This document shows positions 1 through 6,836 of a stretch of DNA of 6,836 nucleotides, in pieces. The DNA comes from Betaproteobacteria bacterium (GTDB lineage Bacteria > Pseudomonadota > Gammaproteobacteria > Burkholderiales > SG8-39). Each line of letters starts with the position of its first letter. The stretch's first letter is position 1. The notes beneath the pieces were generated by a model. That model was not told where the DNA came from. It saw only the letters and a program-made list of their open reading frames with translations, and ran no database searches. The translations under genes and the position numbers were made by a program. Location: positions 1-6,836 of the forward strand of contig JAOUGZ010000143.1 in NCBI GenBank assembly GCA_029865405.1, in the 5' to 3' direction.

Positions 1-326
1 AGGACGACGCCGAGGCGTTCCGCTGGTTCCTGCTGGGCGCGCAGCAGGGCCACACCGAGGCCCAGTTCCAGCTCGCGAACCTGTACGCCCTGGGCCTGGG
101 GCTGCCGGAGTCGGAGTCCGAGCCCGACCGCGCCGCCGCCACCTGGTACTTCGAGGCCGCGCGGCAGGGCCACGCCGAAGCGCAGCACAACCTCGGGATC
201 CTGTTCCTCACCGGAAAAGGCGTCGTGCAGAGCGAGAGCGAGGCGCGCGCCTGGTTCCGCCGCGCCGCTGCCAGCGGGCATCGCGAGGCGCGGCGGTTCG
301 TCGAAACGCATCCTGACACCCGTTAG
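1..326 (+). CDS. Sel1-repeat (TPR-like) protein, C-terminal part; 5' end outside window
   Basis: The frame is open from base 3 to a TAG at 324-326 and gives the last 107 residues of a longer protein. Sel1-type signatures recur about every 36-40 residues: aromatic and Ala-rich helix ends (EAFRWFLLGAQQGH, TWYFEAARQGH, AWFRRAAASGH), each followed by an EAQ or EAR helix such as HAEAQHNLGILFLTGKGV. One full repeat, one expanded repeat with a Ser/Glu-rich loop (PESESEPD) and the tail of an earlier repeat are visible. Sel1 repeats form helical solenoids for protein-protein contacts, often in exported or periplasmic bacterial proteins. No catalytic residues are visible and the partner is unknown. It faces the - strand cytochrome-maturation genes convergently, and its stop overlaps the stop of the neighbouring gene. 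The family call is secure; the function and N-terminal targeting cannot be judged here. Confidence 0.88.
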   Translation, partial: DDAEAFRWFLLGAQQGHTEAQFQLANLYALGLGLPESESEPDRAAATWYFEAARQGHAEAQHNLGILFLTGKGVVQSESEARAWFRRAAASGHREARRFVETHPDTR

Positions 327-1201
327 ACGAGCAGCGCGCCAACGCGCCCTGCCGCGAGCAGCCCCGCCGTCGCCACGACGAAGACGCCGAGCACCAGCCG
401 CGCCTGGCGCCGCGCGTCCAGCTCGCGCATGCGCAGCCACGCGAGCAGCGCGGCTGCCGTGGCAAGCGACGACATGAACAGAAAGCCCGCCGGCCTCGCC
501 GAGGCCTGTGCGTCGATGAGCGTCCACGCCGCCCCCATGCCGGCCGCGAGCAGCAGCAACGGCGCGCCGACCGCAAGCCCCGCCGAGAGCCTCGCGGCCG
601 AGTCCGGCGCGCCGCCACGGCGGGCGGCGAGCGCCAGCGCCGCCACGGCGCCGGCGAGCGCGATCGGTCCGTAACCCAGCGCCATCGCGAAGCGGTAGCC
701 CGCCTCCCAGTAGGCGCCGAAACCCTCGGGCGGCGAGCCGGGCAGCGCGAGCCCGTGCGCGATGAGCCACATCTCGCAGGCGACGGCGAGCATCACCGCC
801 GGCATCACGACGATGCCCGCGTCGCGGTTGCGGTAGGCCCTCTCCAGGCACAGGTAGGCGATCACGGCCGCGGCCGAGAGCAGCGCCGTCCCCTCGTACA
901 GGCCGACGCGCGCAGTGCCCGTCGCGAGCGCCGCGACCACCAGCCCGGCGAGTACTCCGATCGCGCCGAGCGCGGCGAGTCCTGTGGCCACGCGGCCGAC
1001 GACGTCCAGGCGCAACCACAAGTAGGTGGCGTACAGCGCGGTGGAAGCCGCCAGCGCCGTGTTGGCCAAGGTGACCCAGCGAAAGCTCGAGGCCGCGCCT
1101 TCCGCGGCCGCGACATCCGGCAGAAAGCGCGATAGCGTCCAGGCAGCCGCGAGCGCGACTGCTCCCGCAGCCCCCCAGGATGAAAGCCTGTGCGTCTCCA
1201 T
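323..1201 (-). CDS. Polytopic membrane protein, divergent CcsA/HemX-like paralogue without WWD motif
   Basis: The protein has 292 residues and eight or nine predicted membrane helices, roughly at 9-28, 42-63, 71-94, 100-122, 129-152, 168-193, 204-229, 238-257 and 267-291. I do not recognise a named gene. Read against the true CcsA of this cluster, the helix pattern matches: GLYEGTALLSAAAVIAYL (100-117) resembles the CcsA TMYEILSSN region, and LSAGLAVGAPLLLLAAGMGAAW (205-226, with loop to 240) sits where CcsA has its pre-WWD helix. The loop that should carry WGxxWxWDPxE instead reads IDAQASARPAGFLF. The CcsA histidines before and after WWD align with Glu and Arg or Leu, so heme ligation as in CcsA looks impossible. 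The start at 1201 (METHR) is preceded by a G-run at 1212-1217. A GTG at 1294 would add 31 residues unlike a membrane-protein N-terminus. It may be an accessory to cytochrome assembly. Alternatives are a HemX-like protein or an unrelated membrane protein. Confidence 0.72.
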   Translation of the reverse strand: METHRLSSWGAAGAVALAAAWTLSRFLPDVAAAEGAASSFRWVTLANTALAASTALYATYLWLRLDVVGRVATGLAALGAIGVLAGLVVAALATGTARVGLYEGTALLSAAAVIAYLCLERAYRNRDAGIVVMPAVMLAVACEMWLIAHGLALPGSPPEGFGAYWEAGYRFAMALGYGPIALAGAVAALALAARRGGAPDSAARLSAGLAVGAPLLLLAAGMGAAWTLIDAQASARPAGFLFMSSLATAAALLAWLRMRELDARRQARLVLGVFVVATAGLLAAGRVGALLV

Positions 1202-1344: not shown

Positions 1345-1376
1345 CCGATTCCGGGAATCGGAAACCCGCTCGCGGG
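1345..1376 (-). terminator. Two tandem hairpins after the dsbE-like gene, possible weak terminator or processing site
   Basis: Two inverted repeats begin three bases after the stop codon of the thioredoxin gene at 1379. The first has a 4-bp stem (1365-1368 with 1373-1376). The second has a 7-bp stem, CCGATTC with GAATCGG (1345-1351 with 1355-1361), and a 3-base loop. On the - strand no U-run follows directly; only a short TTTT occurs later (1325-1328). This is therefore not a classic intrinsic terminator. It may attenuate read-through, stabilise the mRNA end or be a dispersed intergenic repeat. Confidence 0.4.
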
Positions 1377-1378
1377 AC

Positions 1379-1903
1379 CTACGCTACGAGCCGGCGCAGC
1401 AAGGGCAACAGTTGCGTATCGAGCACCTTGCGCGTGACGGGGCCGGTGAGCTCGAAGCGGATGATGCCCTGCCGGTCGATCACGTAGGTCACCGGGACGG
1501 CGCGCAGGCCATAGCTCTGGCCGATCGTCCCATCGGCGTCAAAGACCGAAAGCGCGTATGGATCGCCCAGTTGCCTGAGCCAGGACTGCGCGTCGGCACG
1601 GCGGTCCATATAGTTCAGGCCGTAGACCGGGGCAAGGCGCGCGTGCGCCAACTCGCGCAGGAGCGGATGCTCGTCCCGGCAGGGCGCGCACCACGAAGCC
1701 CAGACGTTCAGCACCCAGACCTGGCCCCGCAGCTCCTGCGGCGAAAAGCGCCGGCCCGGGTCGGCGAGCGTCGGCAGCGAAAAATGCGGCGCCAGCCGCT
1801 CGTTGACGCGCGCCGGACCGGCGCGGTTGCCGAAATACACCGCGGCGGCGAGCAGGGCGAGCGCCGCCGCGGCCAGTGCCAGCGCCAGCAGCAGGCGCCT
1901 CAT
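1379..1903 (-). CDS. dsbE: CcmG/DsbE-type periplasmic thioredoxin (cytochrome c biogenesis thiol reductant)
   Basis: The protein has 174 residues. An N-terminal membrane anchor (about 5-23) precedes a thioredoxin fold. The active site NVWASWCAPCRDEHP has the redox cysteines at 72 and 75, and E78 matches the conserved acidic residue of CcmG. The segment GLNYMDRRADAQSWLRQLG, then DPYALSVFD and IDRQGIIRF, follow E. coli CcmG almost position by position. The cis-proline is P137. The CcmG hallmark GAPET before the cis-Pro loop is changed here to RAVPVT, so the loop Glu is lost. Family role: a periplasmic reductase keeping apocytochrome CxxCH cysteines reduced for heme ligation, normally recharged by CcdA or DsbD, neither of which is seen here. 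The ATG at 1903 overlaps the upstream TGA (ATGA, 1900-1903), with GGAG at 1915-1918 and GGGAG at 1906-1910 as possible ribosome sites. A start 19 codons upstream would place an uncharged tail before the anchor and is less likely. Confidence 0.92.
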   Translation of the reverse strand: MRRLLLALALAAAALALLAAAVYFGNRAGPARVNERLAPHFSLPTLADPGRRFSPQELRGQVWVLNVWASWCAPCRDEHPLLRELAHARLAPVYGLNYMDRRADAQSWLRQLGDPYALSVFDADGTIGQSYGLRAVPVTYVIDRQGIIRFELTGPVTRKVLDTQLLPLLRRLVA

Positions 1904-2472
1904 TTCTCCCGCGACTCCGCTTGCCACTCCCAGAGCGCCGAGCGCGCCTTGGCGAGCCACGGATCTTCCGGACCGGTGAGATGCACGTAGGTACGCATCG
2001 CGCCGAGCGCCCCGGGCCGGTCGCCCAGCGCGTCGAGCGCGACCGCGAGGCCGTAGTAGGCGTTGGACTTCGCCGGCTGCAGCTCGATCGCACCGAGGAA
2101 GAAGTCGCGCGCCGCCGCGTGCCGCTTCAGGCCGATGAGCGCAAAGCCCATGTTGACGTGCACTTCGGGCACCTCCGGGGCGATCTCGAGCAGCCGGTGC
2201 AAGGCCGTCACCGCGTGCTCGTACTGCCGCGCGTGCAGCATCACCGTGGCCTGGCCAAAGCGCGCGTCGAACTCCGCGCGCTGGCTGCTGCGCGCGTGGC
2301 CCAGCGGGTCGACGTGAGCGCCGGGGCGCGCCGCTTCGGCCGCCGGCGCAGTGTCAGGGTCTTTGCCGAGCCAGTGCAGCCCGGCGCCGCCTGCCGCGAC
2401 CGCGAGCAGCACGCCAAGGACCACACGCATTCGGAAGTCGCGCCGCGCGCGCGGCCGCTGTGCCCGGGGCAT
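1900..2472 (-). CDS. Membrane-anchored TPR protein, putative apocytochrome chaperone (CcmI/NrfG-like role)
   Basis: The protein has 190 residues. A strongly basic N-terminus (MPRAQRPRARRDFRMR) leads into one hydrophobic segment (about 16-33), which would leave the rest in the periplasm. After an Ala/Pro-rich linker (38-60) come three tetratricopeptide repeats at about 68-101, 102-135 and 136-168. Typical TPR ends are visible, such as LHRLLEIAPEVPEVHVNMG and FFLGAIELQPAKSNAYYGLA. TPR domains bind peptides. In System I the TPR parts of CcmI and NrfG bind the C-terminus of apocytochromes. Placed between ccsA and the DsbE-like gene, a similar role for the multiheme protein encoded upstream is a reasonable inference, not shown by sequence alone. 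The ATG at 2472 lies four bases after the ccsA stop, with a weak AGG overlapping that stop. An internal ATG at 2430 (MRVVLG) is an alternative that lacks a ribosome site. The gene overlaps the next one by ATGA. Confidence 0.85.
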   Translation of the reverse strand: MPRAQRPRARRDFRMRVVLGVLLAVAAGGAGLHWLGKDPDTAPAAEAARPGAHVDPLGHARSSQRAEFDARFGQATVMLHARQYEHAVTALHRLLEIAPEVPEVHVNMGFALIGLKRHAAARDFFLGAIELQPAKSNAYYGLAVALDALGDRPGALGAMRTYVHLTGPEDPWLAKARSALWEWQAESREK

Positions 2473-2476
2473 GTGC

Positions 2477-3289
2477 CTAGATCGCCCCCTGGTGCGGCGC
2501 CGTGGTGACGAAGGGCACGCCAAAGAAGGTGAGGAACGCCAGCACGAAAACGGCGATGGCGAGCGCCGCGCTCACCGGCGGCGCCGGCCTGAAGGTCGAG
2601 CGCACATGCAGCGCGACCACGAGCATCAGCCAGGTGAGAAAGGCCCAGGTCTCCAGCGGATCCCAGGCCCAGTAGCGGCCCCACGCGTCCTGCGCCCAGA
2701 CCGCGCCCGCGACGAGCATCAGCGTCTCGAAGACCAGCGCCAGAGCGAGGAACCGGTAGGCGAGCTCATCCAGCTGCCGGTCGCCCGGCAGCGCCGCGAA
2801 CCACGCCGCGCCGCGCCGCGTCAAGCGCGCGAGCACCACGCCGCCCAGCCCCACCGCGATCAGCACCGCGCCGAGGAACACCTTGCCGAGTCCGACGTGC
2901 ACGTAGAGCAAAGCGGTGGCGTAGGTGGGTGGCAGGTGACCCGCGCGCGGGTCCTGCAGCGCGAGCCACAGCATCATCACGAAGAGCAGCGGCAGCACGA
3001 TGGCCAGCGCCGGCCGCAGCACCGGCAGCCGCCAGGCGGCGAGCACGAAAATCGCGAGCAGGCTCCAGACGTTCGAGGACAGGATCTCGTACATGGTGAG
3101 AAACGGGCCGTGGCCCAGCCGCTCCCAGCGCGCGCCGATGGAAACGGCGTGCAGCGCAAGCCCGAGGACGAGCAGGCGCATCACCCAGCGCTCCGGCAGG
3201 CGCCCGCTCGCCACGCCGGCGAACGCGAGCGAGCCCGCAAGCGTGTAGGTTGCGAGCGCGCTCCAGAGCGCTGGCAGCTCGGCGTTCAC
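2477..3289 (-). CDS. ccsA: Cytochrome c biogenesis protein CcsA/ResC (System II heme exporter-synthetase subunit)
   Basis: The protein has 270 residues and about seven or eight membrane helices. The hallmark WWD motif is intact as WGRYWAWDPLETWAFLTW (203-220). Histidines in the positions of the external heme ligands flank it: H131 in LLYVHVGLG and H228 in VALHVRS. The MYEILSSN segment (66-73) before the third helix is also typical of the family. With ResB, CcsA takes heme across the inner membrane, presents it in the WWD pocket and attaches it to reduced CxxCH cysteines of apocytochromes. At 270 residues it is at the short end for the family. The GTG start at 3289 is favoured because it overlaps the resB stop (GTGA, 3286-3289) and has GGAGG at 3294-3298. 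A start at 3394 would add 35 Arg-rich residues. It ends four bases before the TPR gene. Confidence 0.97.
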   Translation of the reverse strand: MNAELPALWSALATYTLAGSLAFAGVASGRLPERWVMRLLVLGLALHAVSIGARWERLGHGPFLTMYEILSSNVWSLLAIFVLAAWRLPVLRPALAIVLPLLFVMMLWLALQDPRAGHLPPTYATALLYVHVGLGKVFLGAVLIAVGLGGVVLARLTRRGAAWFAALPGDRQLDELAYRFLALALVFETLMLVAGAVWAQDAWGRYWAWDPLETWAFLTWLMLVVALHVRSTFRPAPPVSAALAIAVFVLAFLTFFGVPFVTTAPHQGAI

Positions 3290-4311
3290 GCGGCCTCCGC
3301 GGCGACACCGCCGTGCCAGGGCTCGCGGCGGAATTTGCCGTAGTAGTGCGCGCCAAGCGCCAGAGCCGCCAGCACGGCGGCGGCGAGGAGCCACGGCAGC
3401 GTCCAGTCATAGAAGACGCTGTAGCCCATCCACATGCGCAAGCCCACGTAATGCAACGTGCCCGCGGCAAAAGCGTGCGACTCACCCGGTCGCAGCACGA
3501 CGCGCTGCGCGTTCGCGTCGATGGCGAGCGCATGCGCAGCGGGCGCGCGCAGCACCCATGGACGTTCCAGGTCCACCAACTGCGCCTCAAGCTCCAGCCG
3601 GATGGTCAGCGCCTGCGAGGCGCCGGGCGGCGTCCACTCCTGCTGCTGGCTCGCCAGCTGCGCCGGGAACGAGGGCATGTGCACAGTGCCGCGCACCGGC
3701 GCGCCGCCGCGCGCGCCCTGCCACACGAATTCCGGCGCGAATCCCTTGTTTGGCGTCGTGTAGAAGCGGTAGCCCGCCAGGCGCAGCGGCGTGTCATCGC
3801 CCACCTCGGCCTCGCGCAGCGTCCCGCGCGCATCGCGCCAGGCGATGCGCGCGTGCGTCTGCGCGCGCTTCATGCCCGGCTGATAGTGCACGGTGAAGCC
3901 AAGCTGCGTGAATGCCACGCCCTCGATGGCGTCGCCGTGCAGCGGCCCCTGCTCGCGCTGGTTGAGCGCTCCGGCAAACTCCTCGCCGTCGGAGAGCTCC
4001 AGCGTGCCCTTCAGGTACGTGAGTCGCCCGGCGGCGGCGAGCGCCACCACGGCGAGCAGCGCGAGATGGAACGCGAGCAGCGCAGGCTGGGCGCGAAACG
4101 AGGCATGCGTCGCCACGGCGCAGGCGAGGTTGAGCGCGAGCAGCGCGAGCGGCGTCGCGAGCAGCCAGCCGGCCGGGCCCGCATCGCGGCTTGCCGCGAC
4201 GGCGCCCAGCGCGAGCAGACCGATCAGCGCGAGCGCGAGCCGCGTCGAGCCGAGCCGCGCGACAGCCTCGCCCCAGGCCGGCGTCTCAAGGTGGGTTCTG
4301 GCAATTCTCAT
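3286..4311 (-). CDS. resB: Cytochrome c biogenesis protein ResB/CcsB (Ccs1), compact form
   Basis: The protein has 341 residues. Three N-terminal membrane helices (about 19-40, 48-69, 78-97) include the family-like LGSTRLALALIGLLAL start and a helix-3 histidine (H82 in LLAFHLALL). A long periplasmic domain (about 98-300) opens with LTYLKGTLELSDGEEF and contains the typical YRFYTTPNKGFAPEF stretch. A last helix at about 303-322 precedes a short basic tail. This order (three helices, large external domain, one helix) is that of ResB/Ccs1, which with CcsA forms the System II cytochrome c synthetase. Many ResB proteins run to 400-600 residues, so this one has a trimmed periplasmic domain. The ATG at 4311 lies inside the end of the cytochrome gene (26-bp overlap) without a good ribosome site; only GGAT at 4323-4326 is seen, so translation probably depends on ribosomes arriving from upstream. 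Confidence 0.94.
   Translation of the reverse strand: MRIARTHLETPAWGEAVARLGSTRLALALIGLLALGAVAASRDAGPAGWLLATPLALLALNLACAVATHASFRAQPALLAFHLALLAVVALAAAGRLTYLKGTLELSDGEEFAGALNQREQGPLHGDAIEGVAFTQLGFTVHYQPGMKRAQTHARIAWRDARGTLREAEVGDDTPLRLAGYRFYTTPNKGFAPEFVWQGARGGAPVRGTVHMPSFPAQLASQQQEWTPPGASQALTIRLELEAQLVDLERPWVLRAPAAHALAIDANAQRVVLRPGESHAFAAGTLHYVGLRMWMGYSVFYDWTLPWLLAAAVLAALALGAHYYGKFRREPWHGGVAAEAA
3294..3298 (-). promoter_or_regulatory. Ribosome binding site GGAGG of ccsA, deciding the GTG start
   Basis: On the - strand GGAGG is followed by four bases and then GTG at 3289. It lies inside the 3' end of resB, so ccsA translation is probably coupled to resB termination. This is the strongest Shine-Dalgarno sequence seen among the overlapping genes. 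Confidence 0.7.
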
Positions 4312-6836
4312 TGCTGTCGCGCATCCAGTCGCGCCCGCTCTGGCCGTTGCCCGGCGCGCCCACCGAGCCGCAATCGGTGGCGCGCCACTGGCCGCTCGGG
4401 CGGAAGTTGCGGATCTTGAGGACCGCGTTGAGGTAGTAGGGCTGCTGGTTGTAGGCCGCTGTCGTGTTGTTGCGCACCTGCGTGCCGGGCACCTGACCGG
4501 CCTCCTGCCCGACGTCGTTCAGGTTGACGAGGAAGGCCTTGTTCTTCCAGCCGTGCGGCACCGCCACGTGACACCAGTTGCAGCGCAACCGACCAATCCT
4601 GTCGGCGTGCATCGAGTGGCCGTCCTCGCCGCGGTCGGTCAGCCAGAAACCGGTGCGCGTGTCGGCGCGCGTCGCGTAGATCGTGTAGCTGTGGCACTTG
4701 AAGCACAGGCCCGCGGCCTGCTGGCCGGTGCCGGTGGCCGTGTTCCACGCGCCCTTCAGCAGGAAGCTGTTATTGGAGCCGTGCGGTCCCCAGGGAACGC
4801 CGTTCTCGCCGCCGTCGGGGATCACCGAGTTGCTGGCGGCCACCTCGGCGCCGTGGCAGTCGCTGCAATACATGGTCTGCGTGCCGACCGCGTTGCGCCA
4901 GGGGAACTGCCAGTTGTTCGCGCTCAGCCCGCCGCGCACTGCGGGCGTGCGGCCCGTATCGCCGGTCACGGGGTGCCAGCTGCGGTGGTTGCTGGTCTGG
5001 AAGTTCACCGATGCCACCGGTCCCGGCGGGTCCCCGGCGAAGGCCCCCGAGTCGACGGTGGTCACCTCGCCGCGGTGCCCGAGCGGCGCCTGGAACTCCT
5101 TGGCCTGATTGGTGTACTGCGTGAGGTTGTTGGTGCCGCTCGCCGTGCCGCCCGTGCGGCCGAGCGACGGACGGCTGCCGACCGGAAGGACATTGCTGTC
5201 GTCGTAGCCGAAGTCCGAGTGGCACTTCAGGCAGATCTGGTATTCGCGCGTCACGTAGCTCGCCGCCACGCTGGTGTCGGCGCTGGCGCCGGGGTCGCCG
5301 CGCTTGAAGGCGTAGCTGGTCGGCAGTGAGTGGAAGGAAGCGGATCCGTAGATCGGCTCCACCCCGGTGGTGCCGCGCAGCACGCCGGAGGCGATGTTCG
5401 AGTGGATGCTGCCAGCGCCGTCCACGTGCGTGTGCGTGCCCGCCGCTTCCGGCGCGCCCGAGATGTTGCCGCCGGCGCCGATGAAGGCGCGGAACTTCAC
5501 CACGCGGTGCGGATTGTGGCAGTCGGTGCACTCGGCGTGCCGATTGGCAAGGTTGCCCACCCCCAGGCGCGCGCGCGGCTCGACGAAGTCCGCGCCGCAG
5601 CGGTTGTCCGAAGTGGTGCAGTTCACGTAGGCGAGGTCCGCGAAATTCCCGCCGATGTCATGCGCCTCGGTGGTCACGCCCTGCTCTGCATTGGTGATCG
5701 GCATGCGCACCGCGCGCGCGTACTCGCTCCTGATGTTGGGAACGAACGCCCCGGTGTTGGTGATCACCGGGGTCGCGGAATGGCACTGGTAGCACACCTC
5801 CTCGATGGCGCTCGCACCCCCCGACTTGGGGCTCGAGGGACTGTCGGTGCCCTCGCGCGTCAGGCGCCGCGCGCCCTGCACGGTGTGCGTATCGTGGCAG
5901 TTGAGGCACGAGGCCCGCCACACCGGCAAGTTGGCGGGGAAGTCGCGCAGCGGCGCCGTGCTCACCGAAGGCAGGTAGGTCTGAGTCGCCACCTGCGGGT
6001 TGGCATGCGCCGAGAACGCCCAGGTGCCACTGATGCCGTTCTTGTCGTGGCACGACAGGCACATGATGTCGCCCGCCTCGCTGTAGCCCGGGCCCGGCGT
6101 GCCGACCTGGAACCGGTTCTGACGGAGGAATTTCTGGTTGCCCTGCGCCGCGTCAGTCTCGCGGATGTGCGGATCGTGGCAGGAGCCGCACTGCACCTGG
6201 CCCTGCCCGCCCGCGGCGGTGGGCTCCAGCGGCAGCAGCGGCTTGTAGCCGGGCGCGCGCACGCCGATGACGGTGCCGCTGCCCGCGGGCCAGCGCTGCG
6301 CGGGGTCCACCGCGCGCAGCTCGCCGTCGCGCGCGGCGAGCGCGCCGGTGTAGGTGAGCGAGATCGGGTGGTCGTTGGTGAGGTCGACCCCAACGTTGCG
6401 CGTGTAGCCCGTGGCGACGCCCTGCCCTGGGGGCATTACGCCGCCCGCGCCCGTGCCGCTCATCGGGATCGTCACCGTGCCCTGCTGCGCACCCGAGCCC
6501 AGCCCGTTCAGCACGTTGACGCTGCCGATCGCGAGCGTGCCGTCGTGGCAGGAAAGGCACAGCTTCGAGCTGCCGCCGGGCTGGTCGAGCGAGCCCTGGA
6601 TGGCGTTCGCGTCGAGCGAGCTCGAGGTGTAGACGGTGTAGGTCGCGTCCGAAAGCTTGCGGTTCCACAGCGGCGTGACGCCCGGCGTGGCCGCGTGCGG
6701 CGTGTGGCAGAACGCGCACACCTGGCTCTCGCTCACCGCGCGCACGCCGCCCACGCCACCGCCGCCGCTCGCCGAGAGATTGTGCGGTGTGGCGCGCACG
6801 TCCGACACGCGCCCGGCATGCGCCGGCGCGAGCCAG
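4286..6836 (-). CDS. Exported undecaheme (11 CxxCH) c-type cytochrome, doubled-CxxCH / cytochrome c3-like; N-terminus outside window
   Basis: The frame is open from the window edge to TGA at 4286-4288, giving 849 visible residues. Counting from the Val (GTG) codon at 6808 as residue 1, CxxCH sites begin at 31, 84, 207, 250, 301, 339, 427, 526, 648, 702 and 743. Several read CHxPH (CAFCHTPH, CGSCHDPH, CTDCHNPH), typical of doubled-CxxCH domains, and many further His residues could be distal ligands. The conserved opening ATPHNLSASG followed by CAFCHTPH and PLWNRKLSDATY fits this family. Near the end, CNWCHVAVPHGWKNKAF is a recognisable terminal heme block. Four cysteines lie outside heme sites: 397/404 and 813/836, possibly two disulfides. 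No membrane segment or lipobox is visible, so the mature protein is probably periplasmic or secreted. Role: electron transfer or storage in respiration; partner and substrate cannot be told from sequence. It heads an operon of cytochrome maturation genes and is their likely client. Confidence 0.96.
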   Translation of the reverse strand, partial: WLAPAHAGRVSDVRATPHNLSASGGGGVGGVRAVSESQVCAFCHTPHAATPGVTPLWNRKLSDATYTVYTSSSLDANAIQGSLDQPGGSSKLCLSCHDGTLAIGSVNVLNGLGSGAQQGTVTIPMSGTGAGGVMPPGQGVATGYTRNVGVDLTNDHPISLTYTGALAARDGELRAVDPAQRWPAGSGTVIGVRAPGYKPLLPLEPTAAGGQGQVQCGSCHDPHIRETDAAQGNQKFLRQNRFQVGTPGPGYSEAGDIMCLSCHDKNGISGTWAFSAHANPQVATQTYLPSVSTAPLRDFPANLPVWRASCLNCHDTHTVQGARRLTREGTDSPSSPKSGGASAIEEVCYQCHSATPVITNTGAFVPNIRSEYARAVRMPITNAEQGVTTEAHDIGGNFADLAYVNCTTSDNRCGADFVEPRARLGVGNLANRHAECTDCHNPHRVVKFRAFIGAGGNISGAPEAAGTHTHVDGAGSIHSNIASGVLRGTTGVEPIYGSASFHSLPTSYAFKRGDPGASADTSVAASYVTREYQICLKCHSDFGYDDSNVLPVGSRPSLGRTGGTASGTNNLTQYTNQAKEFQAPLGHRGEVTTVDSGAFAGDPPGPVASVNFQTSNHRSWHPVTGDTGRTPAVRGGLSANNWQFPWRNAVGTQTMYCSDCHGAEVAASNSVIPDGGENGVPWGPHGSNNSFLLKGAWNTATGTGQQAAGLCFKCHSYTIYATRADTRTGFWLTDRGEDGHSMHADRIGRLRCNWCHVAVPHGWKNKAFLVNLNDVGQEAGQVPGTQVRNNTTAAYNQQPYYLNAVLKIRNFRPSGQWRATDCGSVGAPGNGQSGRDWMRDSNENCQNPP
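6809..6836 (-). other. End of a signal peptide with AHA-type cleavage site
   Basis: Upstream of the GTG at 6808 the same frame continues without a stop to the window edge and reads WLAPAHAGR. Small residues at -3 and -1 (Ala-His-Ala) fit signal peptidase I cleavage just before Gly-Arg, about two residues ahead of the GTG. The true start therefore lies beyond 6836, and GTG 6808 is an internal Val codon. Export is required for c-heme attachment, which supports this reading. Confidence 0.75.

What the first reader, a model, noticed from the sequence alone, without database searches (positions are those of the whole stretch)
323..1201. CcsA-like paralogue that has lost WWD and both flanking histidines, next to a complete CcsA
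Manual alignment with the CcsA encoded at 2477-3289 matches the MYE-type segment and the helix order. The WGxxWxWDPxE loop is replaced by a short loop around residues 228-240 (IDAQASARPAGFL). Residues aligned with H131 and H228 of CcsA are Glu and Arg/Leu. If the homology is real, this is a non-catalytic copy retained beside the active enzyme, perhaps a scaffold, a regulator or a heme-independent partner of ResB. Such a companion to a multiheme cytochrome maturation operon is not something I know as described.
Basis: partly seen in the sequence, partly recalled or inferred. Interest (0 to 1): 0.72.

Follow-up and report, generated by a model that had tools for sequence, protein, structure and literature searches.

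The report
CcsA relative that lost heme site
Next to the genes that build a many-heme cytochrome sits a membrane protein descended from a heme-attaching enzyme; it has lost its heme-holding parts but is still kept under selection, so it probably helps the assembly line in a way that does not need heme.

Summary
The gene at 323-1201 (-) is real and under purifying selection (dN/dS 0.30-0.37). It belongs to a small family (27 members read; "X") that descends from CcsA but lost the heme machinery: WWD motif and the equivalents of H228 and H266 in 0 of 27, P-His1 in 10 of 27 (Tyr169 here). X is not measurably a copy of the adjacent CcsA. Its nearest relatives are intact second CcsA genes ("CcsA2") beside the same short CcsA and TPR genes in four other genomes, in three next to a second ResB (39% identity, E 3e-29; 142-183 bits against 8 for controls). 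Four intermediates have half-decayed motifs. Long ResB was found in 0 of 5 X-type genomes and 4 of 4 CcsA2 genomes. In CcsA the C-half is the conserved half; in X it is the N-half (348 of 351 pairs). Best reading: a CcsA2 that outlived its ResB partner and now serves the ResB-CcsA/multiheme-cytochrome operon as a heme-independent membrane scaffold or adaptor. Descent is shown; function is inferred.

The parts
323..1201 (-). X: 292-aa membrane protein, CcsA2-derived, without WWD or heme-ligand histidines
893..901 (-). LYE (residues 101-103), the CcsA MYE-type segment; E103 is E in 27 of 27 X, 4 of 4 CcsA2, 10 of 10 CcsB rows
773..778 (-). C142-E143: Cys142 in 27 of 27 X (Phe in all CcsA2 and CcsB rows; Cys in 1 of 4 intermediates); E143 is shared with CcsA2 (E in 3 of 4, D in 1) but not with CcsB (Leu)
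695..697 (-). Tyr169, the column of P-His1 (H131 of CcsA)
692..694 (-). Arg170, in 26 of 27 X (Val in all CcsA2 and CcsB rows)
497..514 (-). short loop, residues 230-235, in place of the WWD loop
434..436 (-). Arg256, the column of TM-His2 (H228 of CcsA)
1379..1903 (-). DsbE/CcmG-type thioredoxin (TIGR00385 131.3 bits, cut-off 123.15)
1900..2472 (-). TPR protein
2477..3289 (-). short CcsA, complete (WWD, H131, H228, H266 present)
3286..4311 (-). short ResB (PF05140 33.8 bits, cut-off 24.6)
4286..6835 (-). multiheme cytochrome with 11 CXXCH motifs (counted by eye in the translation), 5' end outside the window
3..326 (+). Sel1-repeat protein, 5' end outside the window; tail-to-tail with X
   Evidence: the relative in L001 hits PF08238

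Best explanation
X is a heme-site-less descendant of CcsA2, the CcsA of a second System II heme lyase (ResB2-CcsA2, in two of four loci with a TlpA-type thioredoxin after it) that sits downstream of the same short CcsA and TPR genes in related bacteria. Shown: no long ResB was found in the X-type genomes, CcsA2 lost its WWD loop and axial histidines through half-decayed intermediates, and the protein stayed under selection, with constraint moved from the heme-binding C-terminal four-helix core (TM5-8) to TM1-4. Inferred: X does not carry or attach heme. It acts through TM1-4 and a periplasm-facing patch (N47, T48, E103, C142, E143, W145, W165, R170; placed by topology, not measured) as a membrane scaffold or adaptor that helps the dedicated short ResB-CcsA synthase, its TPR protein and its thioredoxin mature the 11-heme cytochrome.
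For: Descent: best relatives are CcsA2 (39% over 211 aa, E 3e-29); X-profile bits fall CcsA2 142-183 > four intermediates 96-140 > ten CcsB 57-66 > short CcsA <= 1.9, best shuffled or reversed control 8.0. TIGR03144 bits fall 262.5 (CcsA2 of G046) > 71.9, 58.1 (two intermediates) > 22.3 (X). Tree: X 100, X+intermediates 97, plus CcsA2 88 (SH-aLRT). X shares N47 and A76 with all four CcsA2 and none of ten CcsB. Ligand loss. Constraint inversion: N-half identity exceeds C-half identity in 348 of 351 X pairs, but in 8 of 171 short-CcsA, 1 of 45 CcsB and 0 of 6 CcsA2 pairs; PMC10663686 (passages) places the conserved heme core in TM10-13 of CcsBA, which by position are CcsA TM5-8 (my mapping). Selection: dN/dS 0.338, 0.301, 0.371 in the three pairs. 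Linkage: all 7 genomes with X, intermediate or CcsA2 among 399 of the order are among the 13 with short CcsA (hypergeometric 5.7e-12, kinship ignored). Long ResB in 0 of 5 X-type and 4 of 4 CcsA2 genomes.
Confidence: 0.5

Rival explanations
1. X still handles heme in another way (a sensor, reservoir or regulator), using P-His1 where present and other residues as ligands.
For: P-His1 column is His in 10 of 27 members; W145 and W165 are invariant; CcsA2 ancestors bind heme by homology.
Against: In the window P-His1 is Tyr; TM-His2, P-His2 and the WWD are gone in all 27; the heme-core half is the less conserved half.
Confidence: 0.15
2. X became a thiol or redox partner of the neighbouring DsbE/TlpA, using the newly fixed Cys142 near the periplasmic face.
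For: Cys142 is in 27 of 27 X and in none of the CcsA2 or CcsB rows; a DsbE or TlpA gene is the next gene on one side of X in the window, L001, L036 and L038.
Against: Only one invariant Cys; it lies within predicted TM4; 3 of 4 intermediates lack it; L034 shows no DsbE in the locus, and in L035 the TlpA gene lies about 3.8 kb away.
Confidence: 0.15
3. X is a decaying relic without function.
For: The catalytic features are lost; the C-half diverges faster than the N-half.
Against: dN/dS 0.30-0.37, like ResB (about 0.34-0.37) and DsbE (about 0.31) of the same locus, higher than CcsA (about 0.15-0.20) (ratios taken); 26 invariant columns among 26 proteins; no stop in the three X genes whose DNA was read for this (window, L001, L034).
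Confidence: 0.08
4. X belongs to an unrelated membrane family and resembles CcsA by chance.
For: No Pfam hit for X itself; weak fold match to CcsBA, with CydA ranking higher.
Against: A series of intermediates, BLAST and HMM scores far above shuffled controls, shared helix order.
Confidence: 0.02

Closest known systems
CcsA/ResC of System II (TIGR03144, PF01578), long CcsB type; here CcsA2 of G046, G146, G296, G817
   Same: Helix order, LYE segment, E120 and R126, conserved TM4 Trp, place next to the same short CcsA and TPR genes
   Different: X lacks the WWD, TM-His2 and P-His2, mostly P-His1, and the long ResB partner; constraint sits in the N-half
Second CcsA-CcsB pair of anammox bacteria with a modified heme-binding motif (PMC4222556, passages and section 10 part 1 read)
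   Same: A second CcsA in the genome with an altered WWD
   Different: There the motif is modified, not absent, and the pair is kept with its CcsB
Wolinella CcsA paralogues CcsA1, CcsA2, NrfI (PMC12285233, passages read)
   Same: Several CcsA-type paralogues dedicated to particular cytochromes
   Different: Those are described as synthases for particular heme motifs; X lacks the active site
YpjD-like PF01578 proteins (name recalled, from no call; six rows called Y here)
   Same: PF01578 relatives without the strict WWD pattern (0 of 6)
   Different: They do not group with X in the tree and X shows no significant BLAST match to them (E >= 1.8)

Membership tests
CcsA / heme-handling (WWD) family | WWD (WGxxWxWDPxE) motif | tested here: not met
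   0 of 27 X members
CcsA / heme-handling (WWD) family | P-His1 and P-His2 | tested here: not met
   window Tyr169; P-His1 in 10 of 27, P-His2 in 0 of 27 members
CcsA / heme-handling (WWD) family | TM-His2 (H228 of the CcsA here) | tested here: not met
   0 of 27
CcsA / heme-handling (WWD) family | TIGR03144 / PF01578 score over the curated cut-off | tested here: not met
   TIGR03144 22.3 bits against 187.6, no Pfam hit; a soft criterion, since the adjacent complete CcsA also stays under the TIGR03144 cut-off (124.7) though over PF01578's
CcsA / heme-handling (WWD) family | eight TM helices in CcsA order | tested here: met
   predicted helices 36-63 ... 263-291 match CcsA 4-28 ... 237-261 in order, plus one extra N-terminal helix
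CcsA / heme-handling (WWD) family | same three-dimensional core as CcsBA, CcmC, CcmF | tested here: inconclusive
   [not shown]
Descendant of CcsA2 | sequence descent from CcsA2 | tested here: met
   BLAST E 3e-29, HMM up to 182.5 bits, tree, shared residues; tree support for X+intermediates+CcsA2 is 88, and grouping with CcsB is not rejected (p 0.070)
Direct paralogue of the adjacent CcsA (2477-3289) | pairwise or profile similarity above background | tested here: not met
YpjD-like WWD-less proteins | clade with X | tested here: inconclusive
   not grouped in the tree, but AU p 0.26 does not reject grouping
Pseudogene | neutral evolution or broken frame | tested here: not met
   dN/dS 0.30-0.37 in three pairs; no stops in window, L001, L034

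The most novel reading that the evidence does not exclude
A pseudo-heme-lyase family: a CcsA that outlived its ResB partner and lost its heme-handling site, kept by selection as a heme-independent factor for maturing one dedicated multiheme cytochrome. It would show that CcsA TM1-4 have a job separable from heme transport and attachment, one that persists even where a System I operon lies in the same gene cluster (G012, G133).
Probability: 0.5. Interest if true: 0.68.

Novelty: new variant of a known kind. Interest (0 to 1): 0.52.

Why it matters
The passages I saw on CcsBA centre on the heme core (TM10-13, WWD, four histidines; PMC10663686, PMC6299221). X is a natural separation experiment: evolution let that core decay and kept the other half. 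If X is needed for cytochrome maturation, it would expose a heme-independent function of CcsA-type proteins. The series CcsA2 - intermediates - X also records how one heme-attachment system is dismantled beside another.

Tried and rejected

Limits: large sweeps scored at most 6 candidates per genome (24), and the protein searches scored only about 8000 candidates, so absences are soft. Completeness of the genomes is not given. Alignments used 26 X proteins and 24 (A3) or 58 (A4) rows of short CcsA: P0002 plus some of the 120 hits listed (2571 matched). The tree used 15 short CcsA proteins plus 4 from loci, and 10 ordinary CcsB from the 58 weaker-hit genomes (12 read). One weaker family hit (G427, E 4.5e-13) was not read. 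Trees are 'quick' (SH-aLRT only). There are only four intermediates (from three genomes) and four CcsA2.

Full report
What is there. On the minus strand the window reads multiheme cytochrome (MHC; 11 CXXCH, counted by eye in the translation) - ResB - CcsA - TPR protein - DsbE - X, with a Sel1-repeat gene tail-to-tail with X on the plus strand. The first five overlap or nearly touch; X follows DsbE after 177 bases, with no promoter or terminator call in between.

X as a family. X itself has no Pfam hit and only a weak TIGR03144 (CcsB) hit, 22.3 bits, E 9.3e-5, residues 85-195. Database searches gave 26 family members including X. All 15 members scanned hit TIGR03144 at E <= 0.1 (best 9.1e-9); 3 of 15 hit PF01578. 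With X from genome G445 (locus L034) I read 27.

Where it comes from. A profile of X run over 399 genomes of the order of L001's genome gave 65 genomes with matches at E <= 0.001. Seven stand apart (E <= 2e-28): one with X (G001), three with intact CcsA2 (G146, G046, G296) and three with intermediates (G012, G133, G171). The other 58 start at 3.5e-18; proteins of 12 of them were read and are ordinary CcsB with WGGYWSWDPKETW. A fourth CcsA2 came from the class sweep (G817) and a second X from the family sweep (X in 2 of 98 genomes; a third, weak hit was not read). X aligns best with CcsA2 (39% over 211 residues, E 3e-29), then intermediates, then CcsB (E 8e-10 or weaker), and with the short CcsA type of the window at E >= 3. 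HMM bits: CcsA2 142-183, intermediates 96-140, CcsB 57-66, short CcsA at most 1.9, best shuffled or reversed control 8.0. TIGR03144 bits show the decay: CcsA2 of G046 262.5, intermediates of G012 and G133 71.9 and 58.1, X 22.3. The tree puts X (100), X plus intermediates (97) and these plus CcsA2 (88) together, away from short CcsA. A tree on the N-half alone keeps X (90), CcsB (100) and short CcsA (99) each together but does not resolve CcsA2. AU tests: X with short CcsA p 0.039, X with CcsB p 0.070, so the CcsB alternative is not formally rejected. N47 and A76 are shared by X and all four CcsA2 but by none of ten CcsB; M133 and L146 likewise, though these are also common in short CcsA.

What was lost. 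In the joint alignment the WWD residues W203, W207, W209, D210 and E213, and H228 and H266 of CcsA, are present in every CcsB (10), short CcsA (19) and CcsA2 (3) row and in none of 27 X, apart from one Trp at the W203 column of one X. The fourth CcsA2 row was cut off; its motif is confirmed, its P-His1, and its other two histidines were seen by eye in its translation. A strict WWD pattern is found in 0 of 27 X, 0 of 4 intermediates, 4 of 4 CcsA2, 10 of 10 CcsB and 17 of 19 short CcsA. P-His1 is His in 10 of 27 X; in the window it is Tyr169.

What was kept or gained. Mean identity is 0.587 in the N-half and 0.401 in the C-half of X, against 0.608/0.71 for short CcsA, 0.771/0.879 for CcsB and 0.676/0.805 for CcsA2. 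The N-half is the better conserved half in 348 of 351 X pairs, 8 of 171 short-CcsA pairs, 1 of 45 CcsB pairs and 0 of 6 CcsA2 pairs. PMC10663686 (passages) states that the conserved heme core of CcsBA is TM10-13; by position this is CcsA TM5-8 (my mapping). Residues fixed in X but different in the four CcsA2 are T48, C142 and L216 (27 of 27 each) and R170 and A213 (26 of 27 each); the CcsB rows also differ, except that two of ten have Thr at the T48 column. By topology T48, C142 and R170 face the periplasmic half of the membrane (inference; no coordinates were measured). dN/dS of X is 0.338 (window-L001), 0.301 (window-L034) and 0.371 (L001-L034); for the two window pairs it is lower in the N-half (0.27, 0.21) than in the C-half (0.384, 0.38); CcsA shows the reverse (0.259/0.148 and 0.19/0.108).

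Locus history. CcsA2 loci: G046 and G296 read MHC-ResB-CcsA-TPR-ResB2-CcsA2, in G296 followed by a TlpA-type gene; G817 has CcsA-TPR-ResB2-CcsA2-TlpA without this MHC beside it; G146 has ResB-CcsA-TPR-CcsA2 without adjacent ResB2, at a contig end. Intermediates in G012 and G133 sit in MHC-ResB-CcsA-TPR-(ccm genes)-X', with a TlpA gene next to X' in G133 and about 3.8 kb further on in G012. The ccm genes are ccmC, ccmE, ccmF (family models in G012), ccmA and ccmG (family models in G133), ccmG in G012 by tblastn, and ccmH and ccmI named by eye; ccmB and ccmD were not checked. X loci (window, G001, G445) read MHC-ResB-CcsA-TPR-(DsbE)-X. G171 has one intermediate beside ccm genes on a contig that begins inside ccmC, and another on an 8.7-kb contig where no maturation gene was found. 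So 5 of 7 X-type loci show the linkage; the two others are G171. Genome-wide, long ResB is found in 0 of 5 X-type genomes and 4 of 4 CcsA2 genomes (in G146 on another contig). All 7 X/intermediate/CcsA2 genomes of the order sample are among the 13 of 399 with short CcsA; the other six short-CcsA genomes gave none (hypergeometric 5.7e-12, which ignores kinship).

Conclusion. Ancestry, ligand loss, retention and linkage are shown within the limits stated. The heme-independent scaffold or adaptor role is the best inference from the shift of constraint, the missing ResB2 and the persistence of X beside the dedicated ResB-CcsA pair.

Noticed in passing
L046+L035 (G012), L047+L036 (G133): System II (ResB-CcsA) and System I ccm genes lie in one gene cluster with the 11-heme cytochrome and a half-decayed X. 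CcmC, E, F rest on family models in G012, CcmA and CcmG on family models in G133; ccmH and ccmI were named by eye.
   Followed up: partly
window 1379-1903: The DsbE in this System II operon is of the System I CcmG type (TIGR00385 over its cut-off); it may be left from an embedded ccm operon.
   Followed up: partly
window 3-326 and 323-1201: A Sel1-repeat gene is tail-to-tail with X; the same is seen in L001 and L034, and with a TlpA gene between in L036 and L038.
   Followed up: partly
L040 6494-11650: Two tandem copies of the 11-CXXCH cytochrome in G046.
   Followed up: no
[not shown]
   Followed up: no
X residues 169 and 178 (window 695-697 and 668-670): In several X members His169 (old P-His1) goes with Cys178; in the window these are Tyr and Gly.
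   Followed up: no
window 1345-1361: Perfect 8-base inverted repeat with a 1-base spacer between DsbE and X.
   Followed up: no
L037 (G171 C103): A second intermediate X in G171 on an 8.7-kb contig where no cytochrome maturation gene was found.
   Followed up: no
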